This document shows positions 1 through 19,486 of a DNA stretch of 22,838 bases, in pieces. The notes beneath the pieces were generated by a model. The model had not been told where the DNA came from, ran no database searches, and saw only the letters and a list, made by a program, of their open reading frames with translations. Source of the stretch: a virus; the IMG/VR virus record IMGVR_UViG_3300027816_000429, positions 1 to 22,838 of that record. One strand, given 5' to 3'. Within the stretch, counting starts at the first letter, position 1; each line of letters starts with the position of its first letter. The position numbers and the translations under genes are program-made.

Positions 1-148
1 GTCTATCAGGTTGGATTTCCCTGTATCTTGTTACTGCACGTTCTATCGCTTCCCATTTACTTTCTGCAAGCACTTGGAAGTGATGGGTTGCTGTACCACA
101 ATTTGTGGTATAAGTAACCTCTAATCGATAAACTTTCTTGTCTGCCAT
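1..148 (-). CDS. Hypothetical phage protein, partial (N-terminal 49 codons)
   Basis: An open frame on the minus strand starts with ATG at 148 and runs off the left edge, so only its N-terminal 49 residues are visible. It begins MADKKVYRLEVTY and continues with a Cys, paired His residues and the stretch ESKWEAIERAV. The alternating pattern at the start looks like a beta strand followed by a helix, as in many small phage proteins that begin with a modified-residue or DNA-end-binding fold, but I do not recognise the family. The start is supported by the intergenic cassette just upstream: hairpin, T-tract and TTTAAATAATTAC leader directly before ATG, exactly as for the gene starting at 1201. No function is proposed. 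Confidence 0.6.
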   Translation of the reverse strand, partial: MADKKVYRLEVTYTTNCGTATHHFQVLAESKWEAIERAVTRYREIQPDR

Positions 149-160
149 AGTAATTATTTA

Positions 161-186
161 AAGAAAAAAGGGGAAGCTATCCCCTT
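161..186 (-). terminator. Hairpin plus T-tract between the genes at 201-371 and 1-148
   Basis: Read on the minus strand, a 7-bp stem AAGGGGA/TCCCCTT (plus-strand arms 168-174 and 180-186) encloses a 5-nt loop. It is followed by TTTTCTTT and then the AAATAATTAC leader of the next gene. This has the form of a Rho-independent terminator, although an RNA-processing hairpin would look the same. Confidence 0.7.
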
Positions 187-200
187 ATGCGGTAGGCAAT

Positions 201-371
201 TTACGATATACGATTATTCGTGTTACCTATGTTCTTTAGTGGTATGGCATCAATGAGCTCGCCATTAAGCGCATATATACGCTTAACGTGCTTATTGTTG
301 CTATACCTTACTATGGCAGTAATTACCCAATTACCATCCATCTTCACTGTCTTAATTTCAAGTGTCTTCAT
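201..371 (-). CDS. Small hypothetical protein, 56 aa
   Basis: ATG at 371 opens a 56-residue frame that ends at TAA (201-203). The product starts MKTLEIKTVKMDGNWVITA and ends IGNTNNRIS. It is basic, with no membrane segment or cysteine motif, and alternation of hydrophobic residues suggests a small beta-rich fold (WVITAIV, RIYALNGELI). I do not recognise the family. The start fits the local pattern: an AT-only leader of about 20 nt (AATTTAAATCAT) lies before the ATG, and the gene is followed by a hairpin at 161-186. Coding is supported by the tight fit between the flanking leader and terminator rather than by homology. Confidence 0.6.
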   Translation of the reverse strand: MKTLEIKTVKMDGNWVITAIVRYSNNKHVKRIYALNGELIDAIPLKNIGNTNNRIS

Positions 372-605
372 ATGATTTAAATTAAATTAATTAAAAAAAT
401 AAAGGGATAATAATCAATGAGTTATGCATCATTACTTAAAGCAAAGGATTATGTTGAGATTGGTTGGTCTCTGAGTAGTACCACTATGTGAGTAGTACAG
501 CTCCTGTTGTTCTCCTCCTCCTCTGTGTGTGATGATAGTAACTAATCTTACAGAGACAAAGAGAAATTATGTGGAGATTGGATGTCCCCACATAACTTGC
601 ATTGG
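372..605. other. Non-coding stretch, possible decayed gene slot
   Basis: These 234 bases have no credible frame on either strand. The left end (391-408) is identical over 18 nt to 2216-2233, the T-tract and hairpin arm of another intergenic cassette, but here the second hairpin arm is missing. The sequence ATGATAGTAAC at 532-542 recurs at 2518-2528 and 3857-3867, also between minus-strand genes. A 9-nt direct repeat GAGTAGTAC lies at 473-481 and 490-498. On the minus strand there is a purine run (AGGAGGAGGAG). The flanks look like two cassette ends around a lost gene. Confidence 0.45.
567..595 (-). terminator. Possible terminator hairpin after the small membrane protein gene
   Basis: Inverted repeat TTATGTGG (567-574) and CCACATAA (588-595), 8 bp with a 13-nt loop. 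On the minus strand it lies 11 nt after the stop codon of the gene at 606-761 and is followed by TTTCTCTTTGTCTCT, a T-rich but interrupted tail. The position fits a terminator; the large loop and broken T-tract make it weaker than the others in this arm. Confidence 0.45.
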
Positions 606-761
606 TTAGTTCTTTATGAGCATAGGAGCTAGCATGCATGCCCAAAATCCTGTTGATGCTAGAATTGAGTGGTACACGTGTACACCCATTGACATCAACA
701 CACCCATTGCTACACCTAGTGTAGCTGTGGCTATTACATAGCCTAATACTTGTTTCTTCAT
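606..761 (-). CDS. Small membrane protein, 51 aa
   Basis: ATG at 761 gives a 51-residue product beginning MKKQVLGYVIATATLGVAM and ending MLAPMLIKN. Residues 5-25 form a clear hydrophobic, small-residue-rich helix, and residues about 32-48 form a second hydrophobic segment with a Cys near its middle. Lys residues at both ends suggest both termini face the cytoplasm. Phages often encode such two-helix peptides as lysis-timing, superinfection or membrane-modifying factors, but nothing here picks one out. The start is preceded by TTTAAATAAGTAGAT, the usual leader of this arm, and by the hairpin at 782-800. Confidence 0.6.
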   Translation of the reverse strand: MKKQVLGYVIATATLGVAMGVLMSMGVHVYHSILASTGFWACMLAPMLIKN

Positions 762-781
762 ATCTACTTATTTAAAAAGAA

Positions 782-800
782 AGAGGGTATGTAACCCTCT
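782..800 (-). terminator. Hairpin plus T-tract between the genes at 806-1201 and 606-761
   Basis: Perfect 7-bp inverted repeat AGAGGGT (782-788) and ACCCTCT (794-800) with a 5-nt loop. On the minus strand it is followed by TTCTTTTTAAATAAG, a T-tract that merges into the leader of the next gene. It begins 5 nt after the stop codon of the upstream gene. Confidence 0.8.
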
Positions 801-805
801 AATCT

Positions 806-1201
806 TTATGCTTGCTGAAAGCATTTGTGTTTGAAGTAAGATATCTTCTTTACAGTACCATCTTCTTGAGGTATGTCTTCAGATATTCTCTCACTAAAAG
901 CATACAATATAGCATTCTTGTGTAGAGAGGTCATTGACACCTTACCTAGAATATATTGAAATGCTTGTGAGCCACCAGGCTGTACAAGAACAGCGTTTTC
1001 ACTACGCGCAATCTCGTGCATGTCTTTAGCATGCAGTAGTAGATCGTCGTAGTTATCACTGCAGTTGTTCAAGAACTCCTGTGTTGAAGGGTAGATATCA
1101 CTAAGATATACTAAGTTACCCTCCATTCCCCATGCAGACTTAAGTTCTGCTAACTGCTCAGCACTTGGGGTATGTACTGAGCACCAAATGAATTTTTTCA
1201 T
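806..1201 (-). CDS. Csx20/ring-nuclease-like protein, candidate viral antagonist of cyclic-oligonucleotide signalling
   Basis: 131 residues. Motifs in order: a short N-terminal strand ending in His10, then SAEQLAELK (13-21); VYL (31-33); a helical middle; LVQPGGSQAF (72-81); LYAFSER (99-105); DGTVKK (114-119); FKHKCF (123-128). This order resembles what I recall of Csx20, a small protein from type III CRISPR loci with a His/Thr start, a central LVQGDFGA-like strand-loop, a YATTxR-like strand and an FKHVxFR-like end. Some Csx20-type proteins are reported to degrade cyclic oligoadenylates. Function here is inferred from pattern memory only. If right, the protein would act in the host cytoplasm to remove a CRISPR second messenger. 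It could instead belong to a related phage family of unknown role. The start has the standard TTTAAATAATTACT leader, and a strong hairpin follows the stop. Confidence 0.45.
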   Translation of the reverse strand: MKKFIWCSVHTPSAEQLAELKSAWGMEGNLVYLSDIYPSTQEFLNNCSDNYDDLLLHAKDMHEIARSENAVLVQPGGSQAFQYILGKVSMTSLHKNAILYAFSERISEDIPQEDGTVKKISYFKHKCFQQA

Positions 1202-1220
1202 AGTAATTATTTAAAGAAAG

Positions 1221-1240
1221 AAAGGGACTTACGTCCCCTT
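1221..1240 (-). terminator. Hairpin with GUAA loop plus T-tract
   Basis: Minus-strand reading: AAGGGGAC, loop GTAA, GTCCCTTT (arms 1233-1240 and 1221-1228; 8 pairs including one G-U). Then CTTTCTTTAAATAATTAC leads to the ATG at 1201. The loop is of GNRA type. It starts 3 nt after the stop of the gene at 1244-1744. Confidence 0.8.
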
Positions 1241-1243
1241 CAA

Positions 1244-1744
1244 TTACTTCTCGATGTGCCCATCAATCCAATCTTGCATATCCCACAACGTAAGGTCTGA
1301 CTGCAAGAACTTCTCAAGGAAGTTATTGTGTTCAGCAATACGTCTCATGATGAATACATCATCGATAAACTCCCAACGTCTTAGCTGTATCATAGCAACC
1401 TTATACATCTCACTCGTTGGGCTTATGTTACCTGAATAGTAATCAGGTCCATCGTTGGATGTAACAATGTTGGCAGATATACGCCACACAGATCCTGTTG
1501 GCATCCTTGAGTCTATATGTATACCAATGTCTACTACACTACCATCTTTCAATGTGTAGTTAGGTAGTATTGGATAACAATAGTCCCAATTAGGATGATA
1601 CGGATAGGCTAGGTGATTGTAGTTGTCTTCAATCTTACCTGCCACATTGCGTAGTTTCCACAATCCCTCATTGATATGAGGATAGCACTCCACCAACTTA
1701 TCCATACACTTACGGATAGTCTTCTTTGTAAATGACTTTTTCAT
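1244..1744 (-). CDS. Hypothetical phage protein, 166 aa
   Basis: The product starts MKKSFTKKTIRKCMDKLVE and ends DMQDWIDGHIEK. It has a basic helical N-terminus (1-30), a Tyr/Pro/Trp-rich middle (YPYHPNWDYCYPILPNY, about 47-63), a strand-rich section with VVDIGIHID and SVWRISANIV, and a C-terminal helical part with paired Arg residues (QLRRW, MRR). No membrane segment and no recognised catalytic motif. The aromatic middle and strand-rich centre suggest a compact alpha/beta binding protein, but I do not know the family. The start is supported by the TTTAAATAATTATT leader directly before ATG and by the hairpin upstream at 1765-1780; the next hairpin lies immediately after its stop. Confidence 0.7.
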   Translation of the reverse strand: MKKSFTKKTIRKCMDKLVECYPHINEGLWKLRNVAGKIEDNYNHLAYPYHPNWDYCYPILPNYTLKDGSVVDIGIHIDSRMPTGSVWRISANIVTSNDGPDYYSGNISPTSEMYKVAMIQLRRWEFIDDVFIMRRIAEHNNFLEKFLQSDLTLWDMQDWIDGHIEK

Positions 1745-1764
1745 AATAATTATTTAAAAAAATA

Positions 1765-1780
1765 AGGGGATTGCTCCCCT
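1765..1780 (-). terminator. Hairpin with GCAA loop plus T-tract
   Basis: Minus-strand reading: AGGGGA, loop GCAA, TCCCCT (arms 1775-1780 and 1765-1770), then TATTTTTTTAAATAATTATT and the ATG at 1744. The loop is a GNRA tetraloop. It starts 6 nt after the stop of the gene at 1787-2188. Confidence 0.8.
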
Positions 1781-1786
1781 CATTCA

Positions 1787-2188
1787 TTACAAATCAATCG
1801 CAAGATATACTTCGCTTAATGTATTTAAGTTAATTGTCTTAGTAATAACACTTTTGTAAGTGTCCTCATCAATTTTGTTTATTACTACGACAAACAAAGA
1901 GTAGTCTTTGTACATAAACTTTTCATTAAAATACCAAAGTACAGTACCAGTATCATCATACCCGTTATCAAAGAACAATCCTTTAGGTGATGTACCTTCA
2001 ATCCATAGTCTATCAAATTGAGTGTCATCATAGTCTTTCTGAGTTCGCATATCAAAACGGTTGTGTAGTAAGAACAGCCTCACTTCATGTTTTGGATTCA
2101 CAAGATTCGCTACTTGATACTTCTCAATGATGGCTCTAACAGTGTTGATTGCTGTTACTTCCTGCGCATTTTCTAAATAAGTTTTCAT
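1787..2188 (-). CDS. Hypothetical phage protein, 133 aa
   Basis: The product runs from MKTYLENAQEVTAINTVRA to LSEVYLAIDL. The N-terminal third is a likely amphipathic helix; the rest alternates between strands (VRLFLLHNRF, TVLWYFNEKF, SLFVVVINKI) and short charged turns (TQKDYDDTQFD). The final residues again form a strand. No cysteines, no membrane helix and no catalytic signature that I recognise; the size and layout fit a small alpha/beta phage protein. The ATG at 2188 is preceded by a longer leader than its neighbours (TTTAAATAAGTATTAATTAAAAAC followed by AATTAGTC), and that second AT-rich part is shared with the gene starting at 2464. Confidence 0.7.
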   Translation of the reverse strand: MKTYLENAQEVTAINTVRAIIEKYQVANLVNPKHEVRLFLLHNRFDMRTQKDYDDTQFDRLWIEGTSPKGLFFDNGYDDTGTVLWYFNEKFMYKDYSLFVVVINKIDEDTYKSVITKTINLNTLSEVYLAIDL

Positions 2189-2226
2189 GACTAATTGTTT
2201 TTAATTAATACTTATTTAAAAAAATA

Positions 2227-2242
2227 AAGGGATTTCTCCCTT
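2227..2242 (-). terminator. Hairpin with GAAA loop plus T-tract
   Basis: Minus-strand reading: AAGGGA, loop GAAA, TCCCTT (arms 2237-2242 and 2227-2232), then TATTTTTTTAAATAAG. The loop is a GNRA tetraloop. Positioned 12 nt after the stop of the gene at 2255-2464. Confidence 0.8.
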
Positions 2243-2254
2243 CATTTCTACATG

Positions 2255-2464
2255 TTACTCCATATCCATTTCTTTACGTCTAGTTATTTCATCTTGTATG
2301 AGTATGTTAAGTTCATCTAACTTAGACAGTTCATACATGAGTTCTGATCTACTTGATTCGATCTCTAGTAGTCTGTTGTACAGCTTATCCATTTCTTCTT
2401 GTGTTACGAACTCATAGTTCAACAGTTCTTCTGCAGGCAGACCTTGGATTTGTTCTTTTGTCAT
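2255..2464 (-). CDS. Small acidic coiled-coil protein, 69 aa
   Basis: The product starts MTKEQIQGLPAEELLNYEF and ends RRKEMDME. After a short N-terminal segment with an LPAEEL turn, residues about 20-65 form one long predicted helix with hydrophobic residues spaced three and four apart (LYNRLLEIE, LMYELSKLDELNILI), so a coiled-coil dimer or a helical adaptor is likely. It is rich in Glu and lacks Cys and Trp. I do not recognise the family. The ATG at 2464 follows the leader TTAAATAATTATTAATTAAAACC, whose first half matches the leaders of its neighbours. Confidence 0.7.
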   Translation of the reverse strand: MTKEQIQGLPAEELLNYEFVTQEEMDKLYNRLLEIESSRSELMYELSKLDELNILIQDEITRRKEMDME

Positions 2465-2504
2465 GATTACATGGTTTTAATTAATAATTATTTAAGAATA
2501 AAAA

Positions 2505-2535
2505 GGGACACGTCACTATGATAGTAACGTATCCC
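2505..2535 (-). terminator. Strong 13-bp hairpin plus T-tract
   Basis: Plus-strand arms 2505-2517 and 2523-2535 pair over 13 positions, with two G-U pairs, around the loop ATGAT. On the minus strand the stem is followed by TTTTTATTCTTAAATAATTA. It is the longest stem of the arm. It contains the 11-mer ATGATAGTAAC (2518-2528) that also occurs at 532-542 and 3857-3867. Confidence 0.85.
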
Positions 2536-2542
2536 TGTAGGG

Positions 2543-3754
2543 TTAGAATGGCAGTAGCGCAGCTATGTCATCAGGTCCAAGGTATGGTGGCAACTCAACG
2601 TTGTTCACAAGCCTCTCATGCTTGAACCACTCTTGCACAACATCTTCATTTAGCCATTGCTCAACGATGTTACGTTGTGTATCACTACATCTACCATTGT
2701 GCACTATGTGCATTTGCTGTATGATGTAGCGTGAGCCATCATAATTTGGCTGTATAGCTAGGCTAAATGGCTTATCACCAAAGGTGCAGTGGAAGTGGAA
2801 GACGTTACGATTCTTAGCACTGTCAAGGTAGTTGTAGATACAATGGTTCATTATACTACCTTCATTCCACAAGCGCTTATTATCAGCAATCAACTCCATG
2901 CCTGGCATCAGTGGACAAGGCTGAGAGTATGGATACTCTATCAACTCCATTAACATGAGATGCTTCTCACGTACAAGACGCGATAGCTTAGTATGTTCAG
3001 CCTTAAGTCTGGCTACTGACCATGTGTGGTCTATCTTCACATTTAGCTGATGACATTCCATAGTGATGTCAGGGCAATGCATGAATTGTCTCCACTCATA
3101 AGGCATTTTACCATTGTTGTGAACATACTGTATTAATCTTTCAGGATTAACATCAGTAGCGCATGCTTGCAACAGCTCATCTAGTACACTACCGTATTCA
3201 CCATTGACATAGGTATCTAACAATATGTTAGTATACTTAGCCAACTTGAGGTGACGATACTTACCTGAGTAAGTAAGGTAGTGTTTCATCAGTTGCTTAG
3301 GGTTGGTAACCTTGCCTTTGATGACACGTGTGAACGACGCAGGAGTGAGCAGTGACAACAATGGATAGTAACCATTTTTGCCATATGCTAGCAACCACTC
3401 ACAGCCTAGCTCTTTCACTATAGCTACCATAGCATCAGTATAGATACTTGCCATCGTGAAGCCTTTCCACATCTTAACACCATCAGGTGTGATGTGCATG
3501 CCACCCGCTAAGCTTTGCTTTGTGAATACCTTACCTGATGTATTGTTCATCATCAGCTTGTGGCTATTCACTGCGTAAGTGATGCTGTTATCATCATTCA
3601 CACGTGCAGTGATCGTAGTGAATGAACCTTTGTGTAGGTAGTTCACAACGTCCTTGGCAAAGAACTTGAATCTTTGCACGTCTGCAGGTAGTTGTTGAAC
3701 AGCTTTAACTTGGTCGATGTAGTGCTGACCTTGCACATAAAGTAACTTCTTCAT
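2543..3754 (-). CDS. PcfJ-like phage protein, 403 aa
   Basis: The C-terminal half carries the pattern I associate with PcfJ-like proteins: LWNEGSIMNHC (His304-Cys305) followed by a Tyr/Leu helix, a strand block (VFHFHC), then a strand ending in IIQQM and an NG turn. PcfJ-like proteins occur in plasmids, mobile elements and phages and have no settled biochemical role. The N-terminal half has helical, basic segments and several His and Trp residues. The chain ends DDIAALLPF, an acidic-hydrophobic tail like that of the next gene upstream. A longer frame reaches 3829, but its first codons lie inside the hairpin of the upstream gene (3820-3839), so I chose the ATG at 3754, which gives MKKLLYVQGQ. 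It is the largest gene of the left arm. Confidence 0.6.
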   Translation of the reverse strand: MKKLLYVQGQHYIDQVKAVQQLPADVQRFKFFAKDVVNYLHKGSFTTITARVNDDNSITYAVNSHKLMMNNTSGKVFTKQSLAGGMHITPDGVKMWKGFTMASIYTDAMVAIVKELGCEWLLAYGKNGYYPLLSLLTPASFTRVIKGKVTNPKQLMKHYLTYSGKYRHLKLAKYTNILLDTYVNGEYGSVLDELLQACATDVNPERLIQYVHNNGKMPYEWRQFMHCPDITMECHQLNVKIDHTWSVARLKAEHTKLSRLVREKHLMLMELIEYPYSQPCPLMPGMELIADNKRLWNEGSIMNHCIYNYLDSAKNRNVFHFHCTFGDKPFSLAIQPNYDGSRYIIQQMHIVHNGRCSDTQRNIVEQWLNEDVVQEWFKHERLVNNVELPPYLGPDDIAALLPF

Positions 3755-3819
3755 GACTATATGAATTAGTTGAGTAGACAGTGATTCTATCAAGGCAATC
3801 ACACATTCCTTAAAAAAAC

Positions 3820-3839
3820 AAAGGGACAAATGTCCCCTT
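3820..3839 (-). terminator. Hairpin plus T-tract after the Cys-rich protein gene
   Basis: Minus-strand reading: AAGGGGAC, loop ATTT, GTCCCTTT (arms 3832-3839 and 3820-3827), then GTTTTTTTAAGG. A second small stem, GATAG/CTATC (3859-3872), lies between it and the stop codon. This hairpin decides against the long form of the downstream gene. It is the only junction of the arm without a TTTAAATAA leader right after the T-tract. Confidence 0.75.
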
Positions 3840-3870
3840 GCTTTGCTGTGTGATGCATGATAGTAACCTA

Positions 3871-4230
3871 TCAGAATGGCAGGTCATCATCATCATCTGT
3901 GGTATCATCAGTTGGGTTACATAACTTATTGTATGTAGCATCACTGATAAAGCCATATCTACGAAGCGTGTCTGCATCAAGGTGATCAACACAACCATCG
4001 CAGAATAGCTGATGAGCATATGCTACGCATGTGCCATAAGTTCCACCCTCATCACTGTAGTCTACATCCCAGATACCAAGTACAGTTGTGTCCATTTCTT
4101 GACAGCAAATGCACTTACCTGATAGGTGAAGATCCATTTGGTGAGAGTCTAGTAGTGTTATCACATCCTTGATGTGTTCTACACTTTGACCTTGAGCGTT
4201 AGCTCTGCTGATGAACTCTTGTATCATCAT
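3871..4230 (-). CDS. Cys-rich zinc-binding-like protein with SSB-like acidic C-terminal tail, 119 aa
   Basis: Residues 1-36 are helical (EHIKDVITLLDSH). Two cysteine knuckles follow, CICC at 40-43 and CDGC at 77-80, with Cys68 between them, as in zinc-ribbon folds. Between the knuckles is a strand section with GIWDVDY and a Gly-rich turn. The last twelve residues are almost all Asp and end DLPF. That ending is the hallmark of bacterial SSB tails, which recruit replication and repair proteins, but there is no OB-fold, so this is not SSB itself. I infer a small adaptor that binds SSB partners or competes with SSB for them. The start at 4230 has two adjacent ATG codons (MM), so it could begin one codon later. 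Confidence 0.6.
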   Translation of the reverse strand: MMIQEFISRANAQGQSVEHIKDVITLLDSHQMDLHLSGKCICCQEMDTTVLGIWDVDYSDEGGTYGTCVAYAHQLFCDGCVDHLDADTLRRYGFISDATYNKLCNPTDDTTDDDDDLPF

Positions 4231-4290
4231 AGTAAACGTTGGCGATTTAACCTATACCATCTAGCCAAAGGTTGTTATTTAAAAAGAAAA

Positions 4291-4306
4291 AGGGACTGTC
4301 GCCCCT
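4291..4306 (-). terminator. Hairpin plus T-tract after the 31-aa gene
   Basis: Minus-strand reading: AGGGGC, loop GACA, GTCCCT (arms 4301-4306 and 4291-4296; one G-U), then TTTTCTTTTTAAATAAC. It lies 8 nt after the stop of the gene at 4315-4410. About 45 nt then separate it from the ATG at 4230, the longest leader among the regular cassettes. Confidence 0.75.
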
Positions 4307-4314
4307 CTTGTGTG

Positions 4315-4410
4315 TCATCTCTTCACTGTATCAGTGCAATGACAGTTGCCTAAGTAAATCATCGACTTACATACAGGACATTTTTCGAAATACTTAAATG
4401 TATAACCCAT
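4315..4410 (-). CDS. Zinc-knuckle micro-protein, 31 aa
   Basis: A 31-residue product starting MGYTFKYFEKCPVCKSM and ending CHCTDTVKR. It has a CPVC knuckle (11-14) and a second Cys-His-Cys cluster (23-25), giving one plausible four-ligand zinc site. A longer frame upstream (to 4545) is less likely because it would include the T-tract and hairpin at 4421-4455; the ATG at 4410 instead has the usual leader TTTAAATAAATATATT. It is the first gene of the left arm, next to the divergent control region. Peptides of this kind can be transcription or nuclease modulators, but no function can be read from the sequence. Confidence 0.55.
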   Translation of the reverse strand: MGYTFKYFEKCPVCKSMIYLGNCHCTDTVKR

Positions 4411-4432
4411 AATATATTTATTTAAAAACAAA

Positions 4433-4455
4433 AAGGGACGAAGTATAATACCCTT
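4433..4455 (-). terminator. Weak hairpin plus T-tract, first cassette of the left arm
   Basis: Minus-strand arms AAGGG and CCCTT (plus strand 4451-4455 and 4433-4437) with a 13-nt loop, followed by TTTTGTTTTTAAATAAATATATT and the ATG at 4410. It has the same layout as the other cassettes although no gene is evident upstream, so it may act as a leader attenuator or end a non-coding transcript from the divergent region. Confidence 0.4.
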
Positions 4456-4592
4456 ATATAACAAAACTTGCGTCATACATAGATAAGAAAGACGACAGCT
4501 CGCACGCAGTGCACAGATAGATTGAATGATGATTGAGTGTAGCACATCAAAAGATTATGAAGAGATCATGTTAAGCCCATCATGCAAACTTC

Positions 4593-4609
4593 CACAGCCG
4601 AAGGCTGTG
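4593..4609. other. Perfect 7-bp stem-loop
   Basis: CACAGCC (4593-4599), loop GAA, GGCTGTG (4603-4609). On the plus strand it is followed by CTTTTCTTCC, so it could end a short plus-strand transcript; on the minus strand no T-tract follows. Its neighbours on the right are the palindrome at 4632-4641 and the nested GC-rich stem. Confidence 0.6.
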
Positions 4610-4648
4610 CTTTTCTTCCAGTAAAATCATAGCAAGCTTGCCACTTCA

Positions 4649-4703
4649 TGGGGGGTAGCCCCAAGCTGCTGAGCTGGCGGGGCTGGCTGCTGTAGGGCCC
4701 CCA
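4649..4703. other. GC-rich nested stem-loop, candidate structured RNA or origin element
   Basis: An outer stem TGGGGG (4649-4654) pairs with CCCCCA (4698-4703). Inside it AGCCCC (4657-4662) pairs with GGGGCT (4679-4684), and inside that an AGCT/AGCT pair flanks GCTG. The 55-nt element is the most GC-rich stretch of the window and has no coding frame. It could be a folded RNA, a replication or packaging signal, or a protein-binding site. No known RNA family was recognised, and it does not fold as a tRNA. Confidence 0.4.
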
Positions 4704-4776
4704 CCCACACTCTAATACACTAAAAATGCATATACCCATGACCTACACTCTTACATAATGTGTGTCTAAAAAGGCG

Positions 4777-4784
4777 TATATTTG
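4777..4784 (+). promoter_or_regulatory. TATATTTG, Bacteroidetes-type -7 box 4 nt before a start codon
   Basis: Exact match to the Bacteroidetes -7 consensus TAnnTTTG, followed by GGGT and then ATG at 4789. No clear -33 TTG lies at the usual spacing. The same box-to-ATG arrangement occurs at 5836 and 5984. If active it would start transcription at or next to the ATG. Confidence 0.4.
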
Positions 4785-4788
4785 GGGT

Positions 4789-5415
4789 ATGGCATATCTT
4801 AATTCTAATGTTCCTACGATTACTTGTTTTATAAGGAATCAGTTTTTGTATAACCATGAGAAGGGTCATGGGGAGTTTACTTTAGCTGATGTACATGCGG
4901 TTGCTTCTATACAGAAGAGGGTACCTCTCTTTGAGGCATTCTTAGAGAATGGTGTCAACTGGACTCGTAGGCCTATCCATGCTTTCTGTTGGAAGAAGGA
5001 TGCTGAGGTGTTACCTCTTACTGAGCATGTGTACTGGGATTGTTTTTCTTCTTATATAGATGTACATGTACGAGAGAGGTTAGCGGGTAAGCAAGCAGAT
5101 CTTATTTCTATTACTGGAGTAAAGAGGCAAGGTATTTATATGTTTACTCTTGATTGGTCTCATGAGAATCGTAATATGTTAGACACTAATTTCTCTGAGA
5201 CGCCAGAGCATAAGTGCGGGCATGTGTTTAAGATGGACAATGGTAATTACTTTATCTATCCTAACAATAGGATTATCTGGTCAGATAAGGCGTGGACCTT
5301 TAACAGGATAGAGTCAAATCCTGGTTATAAAATTGATATGAATGTTTATTCTGTAGAGAATGATATGGGGTATCAGACAGATTATAGCTACATGACTGAA
5401 TTTACTGAAGAATAA
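4789..5415 (+). CDS. Conserved crAss-like phage protein of unknown function, 208 aa
   Basis: The product begins MAYLNSNVPTITCFIRNQF and has an early NHEKGHGE stretch, a Trp-rich middle (FCWKKDAEVLPL, VYWDCFSSY), a strand section with FTLDWSHEN and a C-terminal acidic end (YMTEFTEE). I recall closely similar openings (YLNxxVPTxTCxIRNxFLYN) in crAss-like phage proteins, so it seems a core but uncharacterised family. The frame is open back to a GTG at 4762, adding nine residues. I prefer ATG 4789 because homologues as I remember them start near MxYLN and because a TATATTTG box sits 4 nt upstream, inside the longer version. First gene of the rightward arm. Confidence 0.75.
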   Translation: MAYLNSNVPTITCFIRNQFLYNHEKGHGEFTLADVHAVASIQKRVPLFEAFLENGVNWTRRPIHAFCWKKDAEVLPLTEHVYWDCFSSYIDVHVRERLAGKQADLISITGVKRQGIYMFTLDWSHENRNMLDTNFSETPEHKCGHVFKMDNGNYFIYPNNRIIWSDKAWTFNRIESNPGYKIDMNVYSVENDMGYQTDYSYMTEFTEE

Positions 5416-6797: not shown

Positions 6798-7340
6798 ATG
6801 TGGAATAATATTTCAAACTTCGCAGCCATTATTGCTAATAGAATGGTGCGTACCAAGCTTAATGATCTTGATCTATTACCATTAGGTGCACGTGATGAAA
6901 GCTACGATGGTAATTATAGAGATGCTGCTATTAAACCAAAAGATCTTGTAAATGCTGCGGATGTACAGAATACTGCACATTATGAATTAGATATTAGTGT
7001 TTTTCCTTTTACTGTTACAGTGAATACTACTAAGGGAATTATTGATATCATTAATACAAATGTAGGTGGTGGACCAGTTGAAAACTTTGGTGCACCTTAT
7101 GTGTTTTACATTGATAATCCTGAGCTCGATTTAACTGTTGGCAACAGAGATAATGTATATCTACAGTATTCTGTATACTATTCTCAAGCTGCTGATGACA
7201 ATGCAATTCCTTATCTTGTTTCAACAGGATTGGATCCTAATGGAGTAGGATTTAGCTTGTATAATGCTAATCCTTTGGCCGCAGATACAAATAACTGGGA
7301 AGGCGCGTTATATGTTTATTATGAACTTTACACAATTTAA
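6798..7340 (+). CDS. Phage appendage/structural protein with MWNNISN N-terminal module, 180 aa
   Basis: Residues 1-55 (MWNNISN, AIIANR, DLDLLPLGARDESYDGNYRDAAI, DL) match the same part of the 280-aa protein at 7498 closely, while the rest differs. The C-terminal portion is beta-rich (FPFTVTVNTTKGIIDIINTN, APYVFYIDN, LYVYYELYTI). A shared N-terminal module with different C-terminal parts is typical of phage fibre or decoration proteins that attach to a common virion site by the N-terminus. The function is inferred from position in the fibre gene block and from the module. It is the first gene of the unit that follows the terminator at 6702 and the promoter-like element at 6739. Confidence 0.6.
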   Translation: MWNNISNFAAIIANRMVRTKLNDLDLLPLGARDESYDGNYRDAAIKPKDLVNAADVQNTAHYELDISVFPFTVTVNTTKGIIDIINTNVGGGPVENFGAPYVFYIDNPELDLTVGNRDNVYLQYSVYYSQAADDNAIPYLVSTGLDPNGVGFSLYNANPLAADTNNWEGALYVYYELYTI

Positions 7341-7342
7341 TT

Positions 7343-7492
7343 ATGGCAACTAAAAAGAAAACAGAAGAAGTAGTAGAAGTTAAAGTAAAAAAGACATCTA
7401 CTAAAAAAGCTAAGGTTGAAAAACCAGTAGTATTAGTTAATGGAACAGGTAAAACCTGGGCTCAATTAGAAGCTGAGCACGCAAATAAATAA
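7343..7492 (+). CDS. Small Lys/Thr/Val-rich protein, 49 aa
   Basis: Starts MATKKKTEEVVEVKVKKTS and ends WAQLEAEHANK. The N-terminal 28 residues are a low-complexity, charged Lys/Glu/Val/Thr stretch, probably disordered; the C-terminal part (VNGTGKTWAQLEAEH) looks like a short helix preceded by a strand. Such Lys-rich tails followed by a short TW..L domain are common in small phage virion proteins, but I do not know this family. Spacing to both neighbours is only a few bases, placing it in the same structural transcription unit. It is too short for most automatic calls, but the reading frame is clean. Confidence 0.6.
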   Translation: MATKKKTEEVVEVKVKKTSTKKAKVEKPVVLVNGTGKTWAQLEAEHANK

Positions 7493-7497
7493 AGATC

Positions 7498-8340
7498 ATG
7501 TGGAATAATATATCAAATCTAAGGGCAATTATTGCAGGAAAACGACTTAGAAAGCAACTTGCTAATAAAGATCTAATCATTGTAGGTATTAAGGATGATA
7601 ACTATGATGGCGGTTATTCAGATGGTGCTATTACTGTAGAAGACTTAGCAACTAATTTAGCTACTGATAGACTAGTTGCTGGCGATAGAGAAGTTGTACT
7701 AGCTGATGCTGGTGGCGTTGCAGAATTAACATTTGATGCAGGTGCGGCAGTAATACAGACATCAAGTCCAAACTCTGACTTATATATCAGAACACTAGCT
7801 GGAGATGATATTATTCTTCAATCAGGAGATGATATTAGACTTGAAGGTGATCAAGGTACTTTTGACCAAGAATTTGAAGGTGGAGATATAAGGCTTTCTG
7901 CAGGAAACGGTTCAGATGGTAATGCAGCTAATGCAGGTGATGGAGGAGATATTGTAATTACAGCAGGTATTGGTGGTACCAGTGTTTCTGGCATTAATGG
8001 AGAAGGAGGTTATGTAACTATTGAAGCTGGTTATACACCACGTACAGGAATAGCAGGACCTGATGTATATATTCGTGGGGGTAGTAGTGCAAGTGGTATT
8101 TCTGGTAATGTTGCAATACTTGGAATAGTTAATAGTTGGAACTTTGCCTTAAACGAGGGTTTTATAGCACATCCAGTAGTAGTATTAAATGTGCTTCCAA
8201 GTCCAGGGTTTCCTGGAGCAACAGCTATTATTAGTGATTCTACTGTTCCTGCATTAGGTAACTTTGGTGTTATTGCTACAGGTGGTGGTACTAATATAGT
8301 ACCTGTATTTTCAGATGGTAATAATTGGTTTATAGGATAA
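7498..8340 (+). CDS. Gly-rich beta-repeat appendage protein with MWNNISN module, 280 aa
   Basis: The N-terminal 55 residues repeat the MWNNISN module of the protein at 6798 (DLIIVGIKDDNYDGGYSDGAI). Then come repeated short strands separated by Asp/Gly loops: residues about 95-200 include DDIILQSGDDIRLEGD, GGDIRLSAGNG, GGDIVITAGIGG, GGYVTIEAGY and VYIRGGSS. That periodicity suggests a beta-solenoid or stacked-strand fibre shaft. The C-terminal 70 residues (FIAHPVVVLNVLPSPGF, NNWFIG) are likely a globular tip. The role as a fibre or appendage protein is inferred. Recombination between modules could produce such paralogues. Confidence 0.65.
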   Translation: MWNNISNLRAIIAGKRLRKQLANKDLIIVGIKDDNYDGGYSDGAITVEDLATNLATDRLVAGDREVVLADAGGVAELTFDAGAAVIQTSSPNSDLYIRTLAGDDIILQSGDDIRLEGDQGTFDQEFEGGDIRLSAGNGSDGNAANAGDGGDIVITAGIGGTSVSGINGEGGYVTIEAGYTPRTGIAGPDVYIRGGSSASGISGNVAILGIVNSWNFALNEGFIAHPVVVLNVLPSPGFPGATAIISDSTVPALGNFGVIATGGGTNIVPVFSDGNNWFIG

Positions 8341-8374
8341 ATAATAACGACTAATTAGCTAAAAACAAATAGAT

Positions 8375-8728
8375 ATGTCAATAGGTAATTTAAGAGATCA
8401 GGGTAATCAATCAAAGAACTTTCCTTGGCAGTTAAAAATGTTGCTAGGCCTGCAGGCTATTGCAAATGCGTTAACAGGTACAACTACAGGTCAAGTTAGA
8501 ACTCCAGGTATTGTAAGAGTAACAGGTGGCTATTCAAATCCAGTTAAAGTGTACAGCTTTTCTGTAGCTAATGTTGGTACTGGAAATGGTACAGTTATGG
8601 GTGCAACAATCAAGCCAGGTGAAATAGTAAACTTTGATGCTGGTGTACTAAACAACTATTTTGCAGCAGGTACATTAACAGCAAATGGTACAGGAACAGA
8701 ATTATTAGTTTCTTATATAATAGACTAA
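8375..8728 (+). CDS. Phage structural protein, 117 aa
   Basis: Begins MSIGNLRDQGNQSKNFPWQ; the opening SIGNLxDxGNQxxNFPWQLKML is one I recall from several Bacteroidetes and marine phage structural genes. The rest is Gly/Thr/Val-rich beta: GIVRVTGGYSNPVKVYSF, an internal GAT..PGE turn, then TLTANGTGTELLVSYIID. It is probably a small beta-sandwich attached to a fibre or baseplate; the exact site is unknown. Its stop overlaps the next start by one base (TAATG), which couples their translation, so the two products are probably needed in a fixed ratio. No transmembrane segment, no Cys. Confidence 0.65.
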   Translation: MSIGNLRDQGNQSKNFPWQLKMLLGLQAIANALTGTTTGQVRTPGIVRVTGGYSNPVKVYSFSVANVGTGNGTVMGATIKPGEIVNFDAGVLNNYFAAGTLTANGTGTELLVSYIID

Positions 8729-9981
8729 TGGGTACAATTATTACATCCTCATCTGGATCAAGTAATTCCAATATACTCACTAACCTACCTATGCTTGCAG
8801 ATGCATTTGGCAGGTTAAGAGTATCTACACCATTAACATTATTTGATTCTTCTCATAGATACAAAGACAATGGTCTTTGGGCTACAGCTGCAACTGGTGG
8901 AGGTACAGCAGTATTTAGTCCTAATGAAGGATTAGTAAATATGAATGTAGATACTTCTATCGGAAGTAGAGTAGTAAGAGAAACAACTAAAGTATTTTCA
9001 TACCAACCAGGTAAATCATTACTTGTACTGAATACATTTGTGATGGCTCCTGCACAAAATAATCTTAGACAAAGAGTAGGTTATTTTGGTACACAAAATG
9101 GTATATACGTTGAATTAAACAACAGTACTTTAAGTTTTGTAGAAAGAAGCTCAGTAACTGGATTAGTAACTGAAAGTATTGTAAATCAAGCTGCTTGGAA
9201 TGTAGATACTTTAGATGGTAATGGTCCATCAGGAATTACATTAGACATAACTAAAGCTCAGATTCTATTTATGGATATTGAGTGGCTAGGCGAAGGTACT
9301 GTACGATTAGGCTTTGTTATAGAGGGTAACTTTGTACTTTGTCATAGATTTAATCATGCTAATTATATTACCTCTACTTATATTACTACAGCTTCATTAC
9401 CGCTTAGATATGAGATTTCAAATCTAGGCACAACAACTAGTCCAAGTACATTAAAACAAGTATGTTCTAGTGTTATATCTGAAGGAGGGTATGAACTTAG
9501 AGGAGCGCAACAAGCAATAGGTACTCCAATTACAGCACCAATAACTTTTGCAGCAGCAGGAACTTATTATCCAATTAGTGCTCTTAGATTAAAAACTACT
9601 GCCTTAGATGCCGTAGTTATTATTACTGCTGCATCTATATTAGGATTGGGTAATGGTAAAAATTATGCTTGGAGAATTGTACAAAATGCTACTGTAGCAG
9701 GAGGATCATGGTTAACCACTGGTGTAGATTCTGCTGTAGAGTACAATCTTACGGGAACATCTTCTACAGGAGGTAGAGTATTAGCACAAGGATATGTTAA
9801 TTCATCTAATCAAGCATCTCCTAGCATCAATATATTAAAAGAAGCAGTATTTACTACTCAACTAGAAAGAAATAGTTTTACGTCAACTCCTTATGAGCTA
9901 GTAATTGAAATGGCAATAGATACAATAGGAGGAGTTTTAGGAGCATATGTTTCAATAGATTGGGAAGAAATAAGCAGATAA
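8728..9981 (+). CDS. Phage structural protein of the FGRLRVSxPxTLFDSSHRY family, 417 aa
   Basis: The stretch DAFGRLRVSTPLTLFDSSHRYKDNGLWA (split here by function: residues about 26-53) is a recurrent signature in structural proteins of cyanophages and other tailed phages. Downstream are beta-rich blocks: VFSYQPGKSLLVLNTF, QRVGYFGTQNGIYVELN, ILFMDIEWLGEGTVRLGFV and LPLRYEISNLG, consistent with a jelly-roll or lectin-like fold of a tail or capsid decoration protein. The C-terminal third (from about 265) is a separate domain ending VSIDWEEISR. Its exact role in the virion is not known to me. It shares a one-base overlap with the gene upstream and is followed closely by another appendage gene. 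Confidence 0.7.
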   Translation: MGTIITSSSGSSNSNILTNLPMLADAFGRLRVSTPLTLFDSSHRYKDNGLWATAATGGGTAVFSPNEGLVNMNVDTSIGSRVVRETTKVFSYQPGKSLLVLNTFVMAPAQNNLRQRVGYFGTQNGIYVELNNSTLSFVERSSVTGLVTESIVNQAAWNVDTLDGNGPSGITLDITKAQILFMDIEWLGEGTVRLGFVIEGNFVLCHRFNHANYITSTYITTASLPLRYEISNLGTTTSPSTLKQVCSSVISEGGYELRGAQQAIGTPITAPITFAAAGTYYPISALRLKTTALDAVVIITAASILGLGNGKNYAWRIVQNATVAGGSWLTTGVDSAVEYNLTGTSSTGGRVLAQGYVNSSNQASPSINILKEAVFTTQLERNSFTSTPYELVIEMAIDTIGGVLGAYVSIDWEEISR

Positions 9982-9991
9982 AAATTAAACA

Positions 9992-10555
9992 ATGAGTACA
10001 CAAATTTCAATATCTGGTGCGTTATCTAGTAATTTAGTGTACGTACAAACAAAAGAAAGTAATATTATTACTGGACTACTCCCTACATCATTAATTGCAA
10101 CTGGGATTGGATCTGGAATTGGTAGTCTTACAATACTTAAAGATACATTACAGGTAGGAAGTACGTATAGATTTATAATGGGTGGTATAGCTGATGTAAG
10201 CAATGTAGCAGGACAGAACATCAAGTTTGATATAGGATTATCAACACAGTCTTTTGCACAACTTAGCTATCCATCCCCTGCATCTAATAACGGTAATGCT
10301 TTTCAACTTGAGTGTACATTTACTGTTAAAACTACAGGAGTAGCAGGTGTGGCTGGGATAATGGGAACTATATTATTTAGTTCCATGAATATTAGTGTAG
10401 GTACATCACCATCACAATCAGGTACATCTTTTAGTATAGGTACTACATTCGATACTACTGTAAATAATACATTATTTATAAATGGCTATTTCTCAACTGC
10501 ACTAGTTACAAACAAAATGGTTAGTAATATTCTTACCCTTGAAAAACTTAAATAA
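9992..10555 (+). CDS. Beta-rich appendage protein, 187 aa
   Basis: Starts MSTQISISGALSSNLVYVQ and ends MVSNILTLEKLK. It is Ser/Thr/Gly-rich and almost lacks charged residues, with strands such as YRFIMGGIADVSN, FQLECTFTVKTT and TLFINGYFST. This composition, with low charge, is typical of the C-terminal or connecting domain of phage fibres. It may be a knob protein that assembles on the product of the gene before or after. No catalytic motif is seen. It lies 10 nt after the previous stop and 9 nt before the next start, in the same unit. Confidence 0.6.
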   Translation: MSTQISISGALSSNLVYVQTKESNIITGLLPTSLIATGIGSGIGSLTILKDTLQVGSTYRFIMGGIADVSNVAGQNIKFDIGLSTQSFAQLSYPSPASNNGNAFQLECTFTVKTTGVAGVAGIMGTILFSSMNISVGTSPSQSGTSFSIGTTFDTTVNNTLFINGYFSTALVTNKMVSNILTLEKLK

Positions 10556-10564
10556 CTGTTAGAT

Positions 10565-10873
10565 ATGCTAGAGAAACCATTGCAAGGGGTAATTAGTACA
10601 TCTGGTACAAATGTACTTACTGCACCATCTAATTCTACTATTAAACTCTTGGTATTTACTGTAAACAACTCTATAGCATATACATTTACTGTATCTAAGT
10701 ATAGCAAAGCCACTAATAAGACTGTAGTAATTTATTCTGTTAATTTATCTGCAGGAGATACATTAATCGATGAAAGAAGTTATATTCTTAATCCAGGTGA
10801 TTATATCACATTTACATCATCAGTTTCAGGTACTACATATGAATTAACTTACTTCTTATATGGAACTACTTGA
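10565..10873 (+). CDS. Small beta-sandwich appendage protein, 102 aa
   Basis: Starts MLEKPLQGVISTSGTNVLT and has the order strand-loop-strand: PSNSTIKLLVFTVNN, YTFTVSKYSKA, TVVIYSVNLSAGD, LNPGDYITFTSS and ELTYFLYGTT. I recall similar proteins with a SGTNVLTAPxxxTIKLLVFTVNN opening in Bacteroidetes phage structural clusters. A receptor-side or decoration role is inferred. It overlaps the long fibre gene by 14 nt, so translation of the two is probably coupled. Confidence 0.65.
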   Translation: MLEKPLQGVISTSGTNVLTAPSNSTIKLLVFTVNNSIAYTFTVSKYSKATNKTVVIYSVNLSAGDTLIDERSYILNPGDYITFTSSVSGTTYELTYFLYGTT

Positions 10874-12491: not shown

Positions 12492-12492
12492 T

Positions 12493-12512
12493 CAACTTTT
12501 TTTTGTATATTA
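12493..12512 (+). promoter_or_regulatory. CAACT-T-tract-TTTGTATATTA promoter-like element of the lysis unit
   Basis: CAACT, a T run, then TTTGTATATTA (12502-12512), 34 nt before ATG 12547. The downstream AT stretch with TATATATACG also resembles the one at 6746-6766. There is no TAnnTTTG match here, so it differs from the class seen at 5836. Confidence 0.5.
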
Positions 12513-12546
12513 AGTATATATACGTATTTTTTATAATTAATAGACA

Positions 12547-14022: not shown

Positions 14023-14026
14023 GATT

Positions 14027-14185: not shown

Positions 14186-14186
14186 T

Positions 14187-14345: not shown

Positions 14346-14365
14346 CCAACAACACATGTTAGCAC

Positions 14366-14440: not shown

Positions 14441-14455
14441 TAAATAATATATATT

Positions 14456-16768: not shown

Positions 16769-17286
16769 CAATAAAACTGTTTGATCTAGAAAATGGAGTT
16801 ATCAAAGCAACAGAGCACTGTTATACAATTAACTGGCTGCATGATATAATGGTTAACTATCCTGACAATCACCTTAAGATATATGCTTATATCTTTTATA
16901 TGACATGTCCTAACCCAGAACTTAATCCATTCTTTAACATGCCTGAAGATGATAAAGAGGATTTAATTGTAGAGTCAATTGGTCTGGATGTATCAACAGA
17001 TGATCAGCTAATTGTAAAAGCAATTGAAAAATGTACTATATTGTATACAACACCTACATTACGTGCATATAATGGTATTGCAAAGATGTTGGATAACTTA
17101 AGTTACTATATGGAGACAGCAAATATCACAGCTGGTAGAGATGGAAATATTAACTCTCTTATTGCTGCAGCCAAAAACTTTCAGGCAATTAGAGAATCAT
17201 TCAAAGGTGTTCTTAAAGATCTTGAAGCAGAACAGAGTAAAACATCAGTACGTGGAGGTCAAAATCTAGGATATGATCAGCTATAA
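16765..17286 (+). CDS. Conserved protein just before terL, candidate small terminase, 173 aa
   Basis: Starts MTIKLFDLENGVIKATEHC and includes YPDNHLKIYAYIFYMTCPN, FFNMPEDDKEDLIV, TTPTLRAYNGIAKMLDNLSYYM and AGRDGNINSLIAAAKN, ending in a Gln/Gly-rich tail (RGGQNLGYDQL). I recall very similar proteins directly upstream of terL in crAss-like phages. It is mostly helical. The position before terL, with a 14-nt overlap, is where small terminase subunits usually lie, but I cannot identify a DNA-binding motif, so the assignment is context-based. Confidence 0.65.
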   Translation: MTIKLFDLENGVIKATEHCYTINWLHDIMVNYPDNHLKIYAYIFYMTCPNPELNPFFNMPEDDKEDLIVESIGLDVSTDDQLIVKAIEKCTILYTTPTLRAYNGIAKMLDNLSYYMETANITAGRDGNINSLIAAAKNFQAIRESFKGVLKDLEAEQSKTSVRGGQNLGYDQL

Positions 17287-19486
17287 TGATCCAGAATATG
17301 TAATTCCTACATGGAATAATGGTGTATGGGAAACATCTTCTTTTGATACAAGAGAAGACTTTATAGAATTTCTCACTTCGTTATTTAAAGAACCTGGCTT
17401 ATATGAATTTGATGAAACATCATTTGCTTTTAATGAACAGGCACGCAAATTCAAAGAACAGGGTGAGGTTTACTGTATGGCTCCTTATATGAGCAAAGAC
17501 TTCATCTCTTACTGGGATAATGAAAAAGAAAAATGTCGTAAAGGAGTAATATTTAAAAATGGAGACAAAACATGGTATCTACCACGTGACTACTACATGT
17601 GGCTTAACTTCCTTCCAATATATGATAAGGAGAAAAAGAACTTTGACTTCGCAGGTGTGCGTGATGCACAATATCACATGGCACTTTATGAGTGCCTCGC
17701 AGAATTAAACTATAAGCACTGCAGTATACTTAAGAAACGTCAGATAGCTTCCTCATATTATCATATGGGTAAGTTCATTAATCAGATATGGTTTGAACGA
17801 GGTGTAATACTTAAGTTAGGCGCATCACTTAAAGATTATATTGGCTTAGAAGGATCCTGGAAGTTTCTAGATGAGTATCGCGCATTCTTAAATTCTAAGA
17901 CAGCATGGTATCGTCCTATGAATCCAGGTAAGGTACTTACATGGCAGCAAAAGATTGAAGTAACTGAAAATGGTCGTAAGCAAGAGAAAGGACTTAAAGG
18001 AATGCTTCAAGGTATGTCTTTTGAGCAATCTGACACAAAAGGCGTCGGTGGACCTTGTTCTTACTTCTTCTATGAAGAAGCAGGTATTGCTCCTACAATG
18101 AACAAAACCTTTGAATACTTACGACCTGCAATGCAATCAGGCAGTATAACTACAGGATTATTTATTGCTGCAGGATCTGTGGGTGATTTATCACAGTGTA
18201 AACCATTAGAGGATTTTACAATGAATCCAGACGCTAATGGTATGTATGGCGTAGAAACAGATCTTATAGATGAAACAGGAGTTAGAGGTAGAACAGCTCT
18301 TTTTATTCCTGAGCATTGGTCTATGCCTCCATATATTGATAAGTACGGTAATTCACTTATAAAAGAATCATTAGAAGCAATTGAGCTAATACGAGAAGAG
18401 TGGAAAAGAAATCTTTCACCTGAGATCTACAGATTACGTATATCTCAGCACCCTATCAATATAAAAGAAGCTTTTGCTTTTCGTGATGAATCAGTATTCC
18501 CACTTTTACTTATAGGAGCTCAAAAAAAACGTATTGAAGATAAAGAGTTTCCTTATGAGCATATTGAGCTGGAAAGGATGATGAATGGGGATATCAATGC
18601 CAAGCAATCAAGAAGGCTTCCAATTATGCAGTTTCCCGTAGATAAGAAGCTTGAAGATAAACGTGGAGTACTTATTGTATATGAAAGACCTGTTCCTGAT
18701 TCTAAATGGGGTACATATTACGCATCTGTTGACCCTGTAGGTGAAGGTAAGACAACTACATCAGAATCGCTTTGCTCTATACATGTATACAAAAATCCTG
18801 TAGAGGTAACCAGAATTACAGATAGAGGAGTAGAAAATCTTGCAGAAGGAGATAAAATAGTAGCATCATGGTGTGGTAGGTATGATGATCTTACTAAAAC
18901 ACATGAGCAACTAGAGCTCATCATTGAGTGGTATAATGCTTGGACAATTGTAGAAAACAACGTATCACTCTTTATTCAGTATATGATTGAAAGAAGAAAA
19001 CAAAAATATTTAGTACCTAAAAATCAGATTGTTTTTCTTAAAGATCTAGGTGCTAATAAGTCTGTTTATTCTGATTATGGCTGGAAGAATACAGGTACTA
19101 TATTTAAAACACATCTTCTCAGCTACTTAATTGGTTGGCTTACAGAAGAAATCAATCAGGAAACTGATGAAGATGGTACTGTTATTTCTACTACATATGG
19201 TGTAGAAAGAATAACAGATTACATGTCATTAGTAGAAATGGAACAATACAGACCAGGTACTAACGTGGATAGACTTGTTTCACTAGCTGCTTTGATTGCG
19301 TTTGCTAAAGTACAGCAATCAAATAGAGGATATAGTAAAAGAGTTGACGATGTAAGAACTAAAAACTTGCAAATCTCAGATAATTTATATAAATTAAATA
19401 GTACCCCTTTTCGACATATGGGTAATCGAAAGGGAGGTTCAAGTGGAAGTAGATTACCTAGATTACCATATAGAAAACTTAGATAA
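17273..19486 (+). CDS. terL: Terminase large subunit, 737 aa
   Basis: ATPase and nuclease parts are both visible. The ATPase has the stretch KKRQIASSYYH (154-164) in the Walker A position, without the usual GxxxxGK(T/S); a Walker B strand SYFFYEEAG with Glu268-Glu269; and a coupling-motif-like FIAAGSVGD. The nuclease domain has Asp487 in SVDPVGEG, Glu561 in IVENN and Asp666 in NVDRLVSL, a plausible RNase H-like metal triad. The basic Ser-Gly-rich tail (KGGSSGSRLPRLPYRKLR) is typical of TerL termini. The sequence reads like crAss-like TerL, longer than most. It packages genomic DNA into the head together with the portal gene, whose start overlaps its stop by one base. Confidence 0.92.
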   Translation: MISYNDPEYVIPTWNNGVWETSSFDTREDFIEFLTSLFKEPGLYEFDETSFAFNEQARKFKEQGEVYCMAPYMSKDFISYWDNEKEKCRKGVIFKNGDKTWYLPRDYYMWLNFLPIYDKEKKNFDFAGVRDAQYHMALYECLAELNYKHCSILKKRQIASSYYHMGKFINQIWFERGVILKLGASLKDYIGLEGSWKFLDEYRAFLNSKTAWYRPMNPGKVLTWQQKIEVTENGRKQEKGLKGMLQGMSFEQSDTKGVGGPCSYFFYEEAGIAPTMNKTFEYLRPAMQSGSITTGLFIAAGSVGDLSQCKPLEDFTMNPDANGMYGVETDLIDETGVRGRTALFIPEHWSMPPYIDKYGNSLIKESLEAIELIREEWKRNLSPEIYRLRISQHPINIKEAFAFRDESVFPLLLIGAQKKRIEDKEFPYEHIELERMMNGDINAKQSRRLPIMQFPVDKKLEDKRGVLIVYERPVPDSKWGTYYASVDPVGEGKTTTSESLCSIHVYKNPVEVTRITDRGVENLAEGDKIVASWCGRYDDLTKTHEQLELIIEWYNAWTIVENNVSLFIQYMIERRKQKYLVPKNQIVFLKDLGANKSVYSDYGWKNTGTIFKTHLLSYLIGWLTEEINQETDEDGTVISTTYGVERITDYMSLVEMEQYRPGTNVDRLVSLAALIAFAKVQQSNRGYSKRVDDVRTKNLQISDNLYKLNSTPFRHMGNRKGGSSGSRLPRLPYRKLR

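What the first reader, a model, noticed from the sequence alone, without database searches (positions are those of the whole stretch)
806..1201. Candidate viral ring nuclease (Csx20-like) in the early arm
The order of motifs (H-x2-SAEQLAELK, LVQPGGSQAF, LYAFSER, DGTVKK, FKHKCF) resembles what I recall of Csx20 proteins of type III CRISPR loci, some of which are reported to cleave cyclic oligoadenylate. A phage copy would switch off type III CRISPR or related signalling. I am unaware of such a protein described for crAss-like phages.
Basis: inference. Interest (0 to 1): 0.75.

Follow-up and report, generated by a model that had tools for sequence, protein, structure and literature searches.

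The report
Divergent Csx20-like protein in crAss-like phage
A small gene in an environmental crAss-like phage contig encodes a distant but clear relative of Csx20, a bacterial enzyme that switches off type III CRISPR alarm molecules, so the phage may use it to silence that alarm; this has not been shown by experiment.

Summary
The 131-aa ORF at 806-1201 (minus strand) is real. P0001 keeps all six residues invariant in 25 Csx20 proteins collected here (H10, Q16, G77, R105, F123, H125). Its AlphaFold model has the same order of helices and strands as a bona fide Csx20 modelled the same way; SAVED and CARF domains, including ring nucleases, are among its best solved-structure matches, though Z stays below 8 and unrelated folds tie.

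It is not a typical Csx20: 36 bits against a curated cut-off of 70, outside the CRISPR-Csx20 clade (100/99), and nearer to a large, apparently uncharacterised phage and plasmid family ('NLTQH...AMIGGAPYLM...DGSVxKxxxFRHxGF'). The terminase confirms a crAss-like phage.

Best explanation: a viral cyclic-oligoadenylate (probably cA4) ring nuclease or sponge that blunts type III CRISPR or related signalling. Homology is shown; activity, ligand and timing are inferred. No sibling contig confirms the gene, and 43 related records (mostly fragments) lack it. Phage Csx20 was already reported (PMC12409355), so this is a divergent variant of a known kind.

The parts
806..1201 (-). ORF of 131 aa (P0001), Csx20-superfamily protein
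1172..1174 (-). codon of H10 in the beta1-alpha1 loop; invariant in Csx20, NLTQH and Fusobacterium phage relatives; proposed catalytic His (by analogy with Csx15 H13 and AcrIII-2 H128)
   Evidence: role inferred
1154..1156 (-). codon of Q16, invariant across all groups
971..973 (-). codon of G77 in LVQPGGSQAF (QGDFGA in CRISPR Csx20, IGGAP in the NLTQH family)
887..889 (-). codon of R105 (YAFSER), invariant across all groups
845..862 (-). DGTVKK turn of the C-terminal hairpin; D114, G115, V117, K119 invariant in the phage/plasmid branch
818..835 (-). FKHKCF: F123, H125, F128; F-x-H-x-x-F is shared with CRISPR Csx20
1207..1215 (-). TTTAAATAA leader element just before the ATG, repeated before several neighbouring genes
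1220..1241 (-). terminator-like hairpin of the upstream gene, separating it from this one
782..800 (-). terminator-like hairpin after this gene's stop
17273..19486 (+). large terminase, crAss-like (context)

Best explanation
The gene encodes a small CARF/SAVED-like (derived Rossmann) protein of the Csx20 superfamily. Most likely it is made during infection, dimerises, binds cyclic oligoadenylate (probably cA4) from a host type III CRISPR Cas10 or a similar cyclase, and removes it, by metal-independent cleavage using H10 with R105 and H125, or by sequestration. That would stop activation of the cOA-dependent effectors. Shown: the ORF, near full-length homology, retention of all six invariant Csx20 residues, a matching model topology, a crAss-like phage. 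Inferred: ligand, cleavage versus sequestration, catalytic roles, dimerisation, timing, and the presence of a cOA-signalling host.
For: NCBIfam Csx20 E 5.6e-9; PADLOC Csx20 E 7.5e-8; hhalign to 25 Csx20 sequences prob. 95.3, E 2.3e-8, residues 1-129; all six Csx20-invariant residues kept; model pLDDT 81.5 with strands and helices in the same order as bona fide Csx20 L019. VIA-align lists Cap4 SAVED (Z 7.2, rmsd 3.0, 108 aligned), SAVED-CHAT (7.2), Cap5 SAVED (6.9), Cam1 CARF (5.8), Crn1 Sis0811 (5.6) and the viral ring nuclease AcrIII-2 (5.5). The control L019 recovers Crn1 Sso2081 at the top (7.4; 7ygh 6.8), as published for Csx20 (PMC12409355). Csx20 cleaves cA4 in vitro (PMC12409355); Csx15 H13 and AcrIII-2 H128 show that a His in this part of the fold is catalytic in related proteins.
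Against: Score is half the curated cut-off (36.4 against 70 bits). It sits outside the CRISPR-Csx20 clade and nearer to the NLTQH family, for which I know of no tested function (long branch, 94/55). CRISPR-Csx20 positions such as QGDFGA, T102-T103 and R129 are replaced. Structural matches are below Z 8, argininosuccinate synthase ties at 7.2, and Foldseek finds nothing in PDB at E <= 0.001. No type III CRISPR host is linked. In Bacteroides at least one type III system uses SAM-AMP, not cOA.
Confidence: 0.55

Rival explanations
1. Sponge: the protein binds a cyclic nucleotide (cA4, or a CBASS or Thoeris-type signal) tightly without cleaving it, as reported for some Csx15 proteins.
For: Some Csx15 proteins only sequester cA4 (PMC13148439); SAVED domains of CBASS effectors are among the best fold matches.
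Against: All candidate catalytic residues are kept; the Csx15 paper argues that sponging suits low signal levels and that type III systems make large amounts.
Confidence: 0.2
2. The phage/plasmid branch (NLTQH family and this protein) shares the fold but does something else, for example binding another nucleotide or serving phage or plasmid DNA metabolism; Csx20 would be a CRISPR-adopted offshoot.
For: P0001 and the NLTQH family are closer to each other than to CRISPR Csx20; on two conjugative plasmids the NLTQH gene sits in a conserved ssb-recT-exonuclease-[NLTQH]-MoxR/AAA-DUF3150-VWA block.
Against: H10, Q16, G77, R105, F123 and H125 are shared with an enzymatically tested family.
Confidence: 0.2
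3. A degenerate or inactive gene, or an assembly artefact joining foreign DNA to a crAss-like contig.
For: The near-identical sister contig L122 begins at window position 7273, so no second contig covers 806-1201; 43 related records lack the gene, most of them fragments.
Against: The ORF is intact, keeps all invariant residues, and shares leader and terminator-like elements with its neighbours.
Confidence: 0.05

Closest known systems
Csx20 (NCBIfam NF040559), type III CRISPR-associated cA4 ring nuclease
   Same: Near full-length homology, same order of strands and helices, six invariant residues kept
   Different: 36 against a 70-bit cut-off; outside the CRISPR clade; no QGDFGA/TT motif; in a phage, no CRISPR locus recognised beside it
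Csx20-like proteins of Fusobacterium phages JD-Fnp1, -4, -6, -7
   Same: Phage-encoded, about 30% identical, same invariants, 42-48 bits to NF040559 for those scanned
   Different: KHKGF instead of KHKCF; phages of about 175-180 kb of Fusobacterium; group nearer the CRISPR Csx20 clade
'NLTQH' phage and plasmid family (named here)
   Same: Highest profile score with P0001 (39.3 bits), DG[ST]VxKxxxF[RK]HxxF hairpin
   Different: P0001 lacks the NLTQH start motif (has IWCSVH) and the LLTF segment; it is a long branch
AcrIII-2/Crn5, viral SAVED ring nuclease; AcrIII-1/Crn2
   Same: Phage-encoded; AcrIII-2 shares the CARF/SAVED superfamily core (Z 5.5)
   Different: No sequence relation was found; AcrIII-2 is a larger SAVED protein
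Csx15 and Csx16
   Same: CARF-like, about the same size, CRISPR ring nucleases or sponges
   Different: No Csx15 or Csx16 model hit P0001 at E <= 1 in NCBIfam; only the mixed PADLOC model Csx15/20/peptidase did

Membership tests
Csx20 (NF040559 equivalog) | Score above the curated cut-off of 70 bits | tested here: not met
   36.4 bits; bona fide L019 scores 121
Csx20 (NF040559 equivalog) | Placement inside the CRISPR-Csx20 clade | tested here: not met
   CRISPR clade 100/99 without P0001; long branch, placement unsure
Csx20 (NF040559 equivalog) | Location beside a type III CRISPR locus | tested here: not met
   Phage contig; neighbours are small unknown ORFs and a PcfJ-like protein; no significant cas match among the early-arm proteins scanned
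Csx20 superfamily (wider sense) | Significant profile homology over nearly the whole protein | tested here: met
   E 5.6e-9 and 7.5e-8; hhalign 95.3%, E 2.3e-8
Csx20 superfamily (wider sense) | Invariant residues H, Q, G, R, F, H | tested here: met
   H10, Q16, G77, R105, F123, H125 all present
Csx20 superfamily (wider sense) | CARF-like Rossmann core | tested here: inconclusive
   Same order of elements as L019; 15 of 50 listed rows are CARF/SAVED-type, but Z < 8 with unrelated ties
Ring nuclease | Cleavage of a cyclic oligoadenylate | not testable with these tools
   Needs a biochemical assay
Anti-CRISPR (AcrIII) | Relief of type III CRISPR immunity | not testable with these tools
   Needs an in vivo assay
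crAss-like phage | crAss-like terminase | tested here: met
   132 phage records matched, led by crAss-like phages, about 24% identity over 85%

The most novel reading that the evidence does not exclude
P0001 belongs to a large, overlooked mobile-element branch of the Csx20 superfamily (the NLTQH family on phages and conjugative plasmids) that serves as a widespread arsenal of cyclic-oligonucleotide nucleases or sponges, with CRISPR Csx20 as the host-adopted offshoot, and crAss-like phages use it against cOA signalling.
Probability: 0.4. Interest if true: 0.75.

Novelty: new variant of a known kind. Interest (0 to 1): 0.5.

Why it matters
If active, it would put cyclic-oligoadenylate counter-defence in crAss-like phages, for which I found no such report in the papers searched, and imply that some of their hosts use cOA signalling. 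It also points to a much larger set of untested Csx20-like proteins on phages and plasmids: a published survey counted Csx20 in four of 28,114 phage genomes (PMC12409355), while one motif pattern found dozens of relatives in IMG/VR.

Tried and rejected
Direct scans of IMG/VR and of GTDB contigs with P0001 or small alignments found no relative; only the motif pattern worked. The KHxCF version of the pattern in GTDB contigs gave one locus, the same contig as L019 (Laceyella sacchari). tblastn hits to Natrialba phage PhiCh1 were on the strand opposite to the annotated gene and were dropped as chance. No solved structure matched by sequence (the one row at E 0.86 is chance). A Csx15 or Csx16 assignment was not supported by NCBIfam, although Csx15-like folds are not excluded. 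No paper on a ring nuclease of a crAss-like phage was found; this library lacks most subscription papers, and the 2020 CARF-superfamily paper was not held. Predicted 'anti-CRISPR' genes of pig crAss-like phages (PMC12053484) rest on machine-learning calls and name no ring nuclease in the passages read. Supplementary files could not be read, so which four phages carry Csx20 in PMC12409355 is not known here.

Full report
Observation. It lies in a run of small minus-strand genes (about 200-4230) that diverges from a plus-strand block ending with terminase and portal. The terminase matches crAss-like phages at about 24% over 85% of its length, and IMG/VR holds hundreds of closer relatives. 'Early' is inferred from this layout only.

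Homology. P0001 matches the curated NCBIfam Csx20 model over residues 10-129 at E 5.6e-9 and two PADLOC Csx20 models at E 7.5e-8 and 1.1e-6. Pfam and PHROGs gave no match. The five phage and plasmid relatives found by tblastn and then scanned also match the Csx20 model below its cut-off. A pattern for the motif DG[ST]VxKxxxF[KR]Hx[GC]F found 79 stretches in IMG/VR; nearly all encode one family beginning NLTQH, and one, L019, is a bona fide Csx20 at 121 bits whose contig is also a Laceyella sacchari genome contig. From 398 genomes of the phylum of that Laceyella genome, 28 have a Csx20 above the cut-off; 25 sequences (24 of these plus L019) were used as the CRISPR-type reference set. Their CRISPR neighbourhoods were not checked one by one.

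Which branch. With profiles built here P0001 scores 39.3 bits to the NLTQH family, 36.8 to the Fusobacterium phage set and 23.3 to the CRISPR-type set, against at most 8.9 for shuffled sequence. hhalign gives 97.4% (E 1.1e-11, residues 52-130), 96.8% (E 3e-10, residues 1-130) and 95.3% (E 2.3e-8, residues 1-129). A tree puts the CRISPR-type set in one clade (100/99) without P0001; P0001 groups with the NLTQH family at 94/55 on a very long branch, so its exact place is unsure. P0001 is therefore a Csx20-superfamily protein but not a Csx20 equivalog.

Residues. Six positions are 100% conserved in the 25 CRISPR-type Csx20: H10, Q16, G77, R105, F123 and H125 in P0001 numbering. P0001, the NLTQH family and the Fusobacterium phage proteins have all six. 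D114, G115, V117 and K119 are invariant in the mobile-element branch and partly kept in CRISPR Csx20. H10 lies between strand 1 and helix 1, the place of the catalytic His of Csx15; its role here is inferred. CRISPR-type QGDFGA, the TT before R105 and the R after the final F are not kept.

Structure. The P0001 model (pLDDT 81.5, pTM 0.68; residues 31-50 weak) has the same order of main strands and helices as the model of L019 (pLDDT 90.3), except that the short second strand of L019 is not formed. The two models come from nearly the same alignment, so they are not fully independent. For P0001, 15 of the 50 rows listed by VIA-align are CARF or SAVED-type proteins spanning the whole model: Cap4 SAVED 7yia Z 7.2 (rmsd 3.0, 108 aligned), SAVED-CHAT 7.2, Cap5 6.9, Cdn1 6.3, Cam1 5.8, Crn1 Sis0811 5.6, AcrIII-2 5.5; but argininosuccinate synthase also reaches 7.2 (rmsd 4.6) and no Z reaches 8. 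Foldseek gives no PDB match at E <= 0.001. The control L019 gives Crn1 Sso2081 first (8htw Z 7.4; 7ygh Z 6.8, rmsd 3.1), in line with the published DALI match of Csx20 to 7YGH. So the fold evidence agrees with the sequence evidence but would not stand alone. Both models share the same best viral match, A0A5Q2WBQ4 (E 3.9e-7 and 1.4e-8).

Function. Csx20 degrades cA4, and cA3 at high enzyme concentration, in vitro (PMC12409355). Csx20 has been reported in four of 28,114 phage genomes (PMC12409355). By homology the best reading is removal of cyclic oligoadenylate by cleavage, or by sequestration as in some Csx15 (PMC13148439). Nothing here tests ligand or activity. The host is unknown; a Bacteroides type III system is known to use SAM-AMP (PMC10600005), so a cA4-using host cannot be assumed.

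Conservation and assembly. L122 is 99.98% identical to 7273-22838 but stops there, and none of the fetched relatives covers 806-1201. A search of 43 related records, three of them over 110 kb, found no homologue; most are fragments, and no positive control was in that set. The gene is best viewed as a sporadic accessory gene, or as so far unsampled in relatives. It shares the terminator-like hairpin plus TTTAAATAA leader of its neighbours, which argues for a resident gene.

Verdict. Observation confirmed; interpretation partly supported; a new, divergent variant of a known kind, a viral ring-nuclease candidate. The wider NLTQH family is probably the more interesting lead.

Noticed in passing
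L009-L087 (viral contigs); plasmid loci L007, L200-L202: A large family 'NLTQHxATxEQ...AMIGGAPYLM...YAFSxRESVE...DGSVxKxxVFRHxGFV' on phages and on 144 plasmid records, annotated hypothetical in the rows seen, with sub-cut-off Csx20 similarity (33-47 bits in the members scanned).
   Followed up: partly
L200, L201: On plasmids Rts1 and pPROV175-PER the NLTQH gene sits in the same block: ssb, recT, lambda-type exonuclease, NLTQH, MoxR/AAA ATPase, DUF3150, VWA.
   Followed up: no
window 160-4310, minus strand: Most small genes here are separated by a terminator-like hairpin followed by TTTAAATAA shortly before the next start codon; 18 terminator-like sites in 1-5000 against 2.6 expected. Possibly single-gene transcription units or a promoter element.
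   Followed up: partly
window 4837-4992: 156 bases are 77.7% identical to Synechococcus phage Sf-CH1b under a gene annotated PurM; the enclosing ORF 4762-5415 has 28-30% relatives in crAss-like contigs. Possible gene exchange between distant phages.
   Followed up: partly
window 2543-3829, minus strand: PcfJ-like protein (Pfam E 9.6e-5, just under its cut-off); weak relative in the crAss-like contig G411.
   Followed up: partly
L103, L106, L111, L116: Csx20 as the C-terminal part of 564-607-aa open frames; PADLOC holds a model of such a fusion (CARF-HEPN-Csx20).
   Followed up: no
L019 and L088: A bona fide Csx20 lies on a 46-kb Laceyella sacchari contig that IMG/VR lists as viral; it may be a prophage, a plasmid or a misclassified piece.
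   Followed up: no
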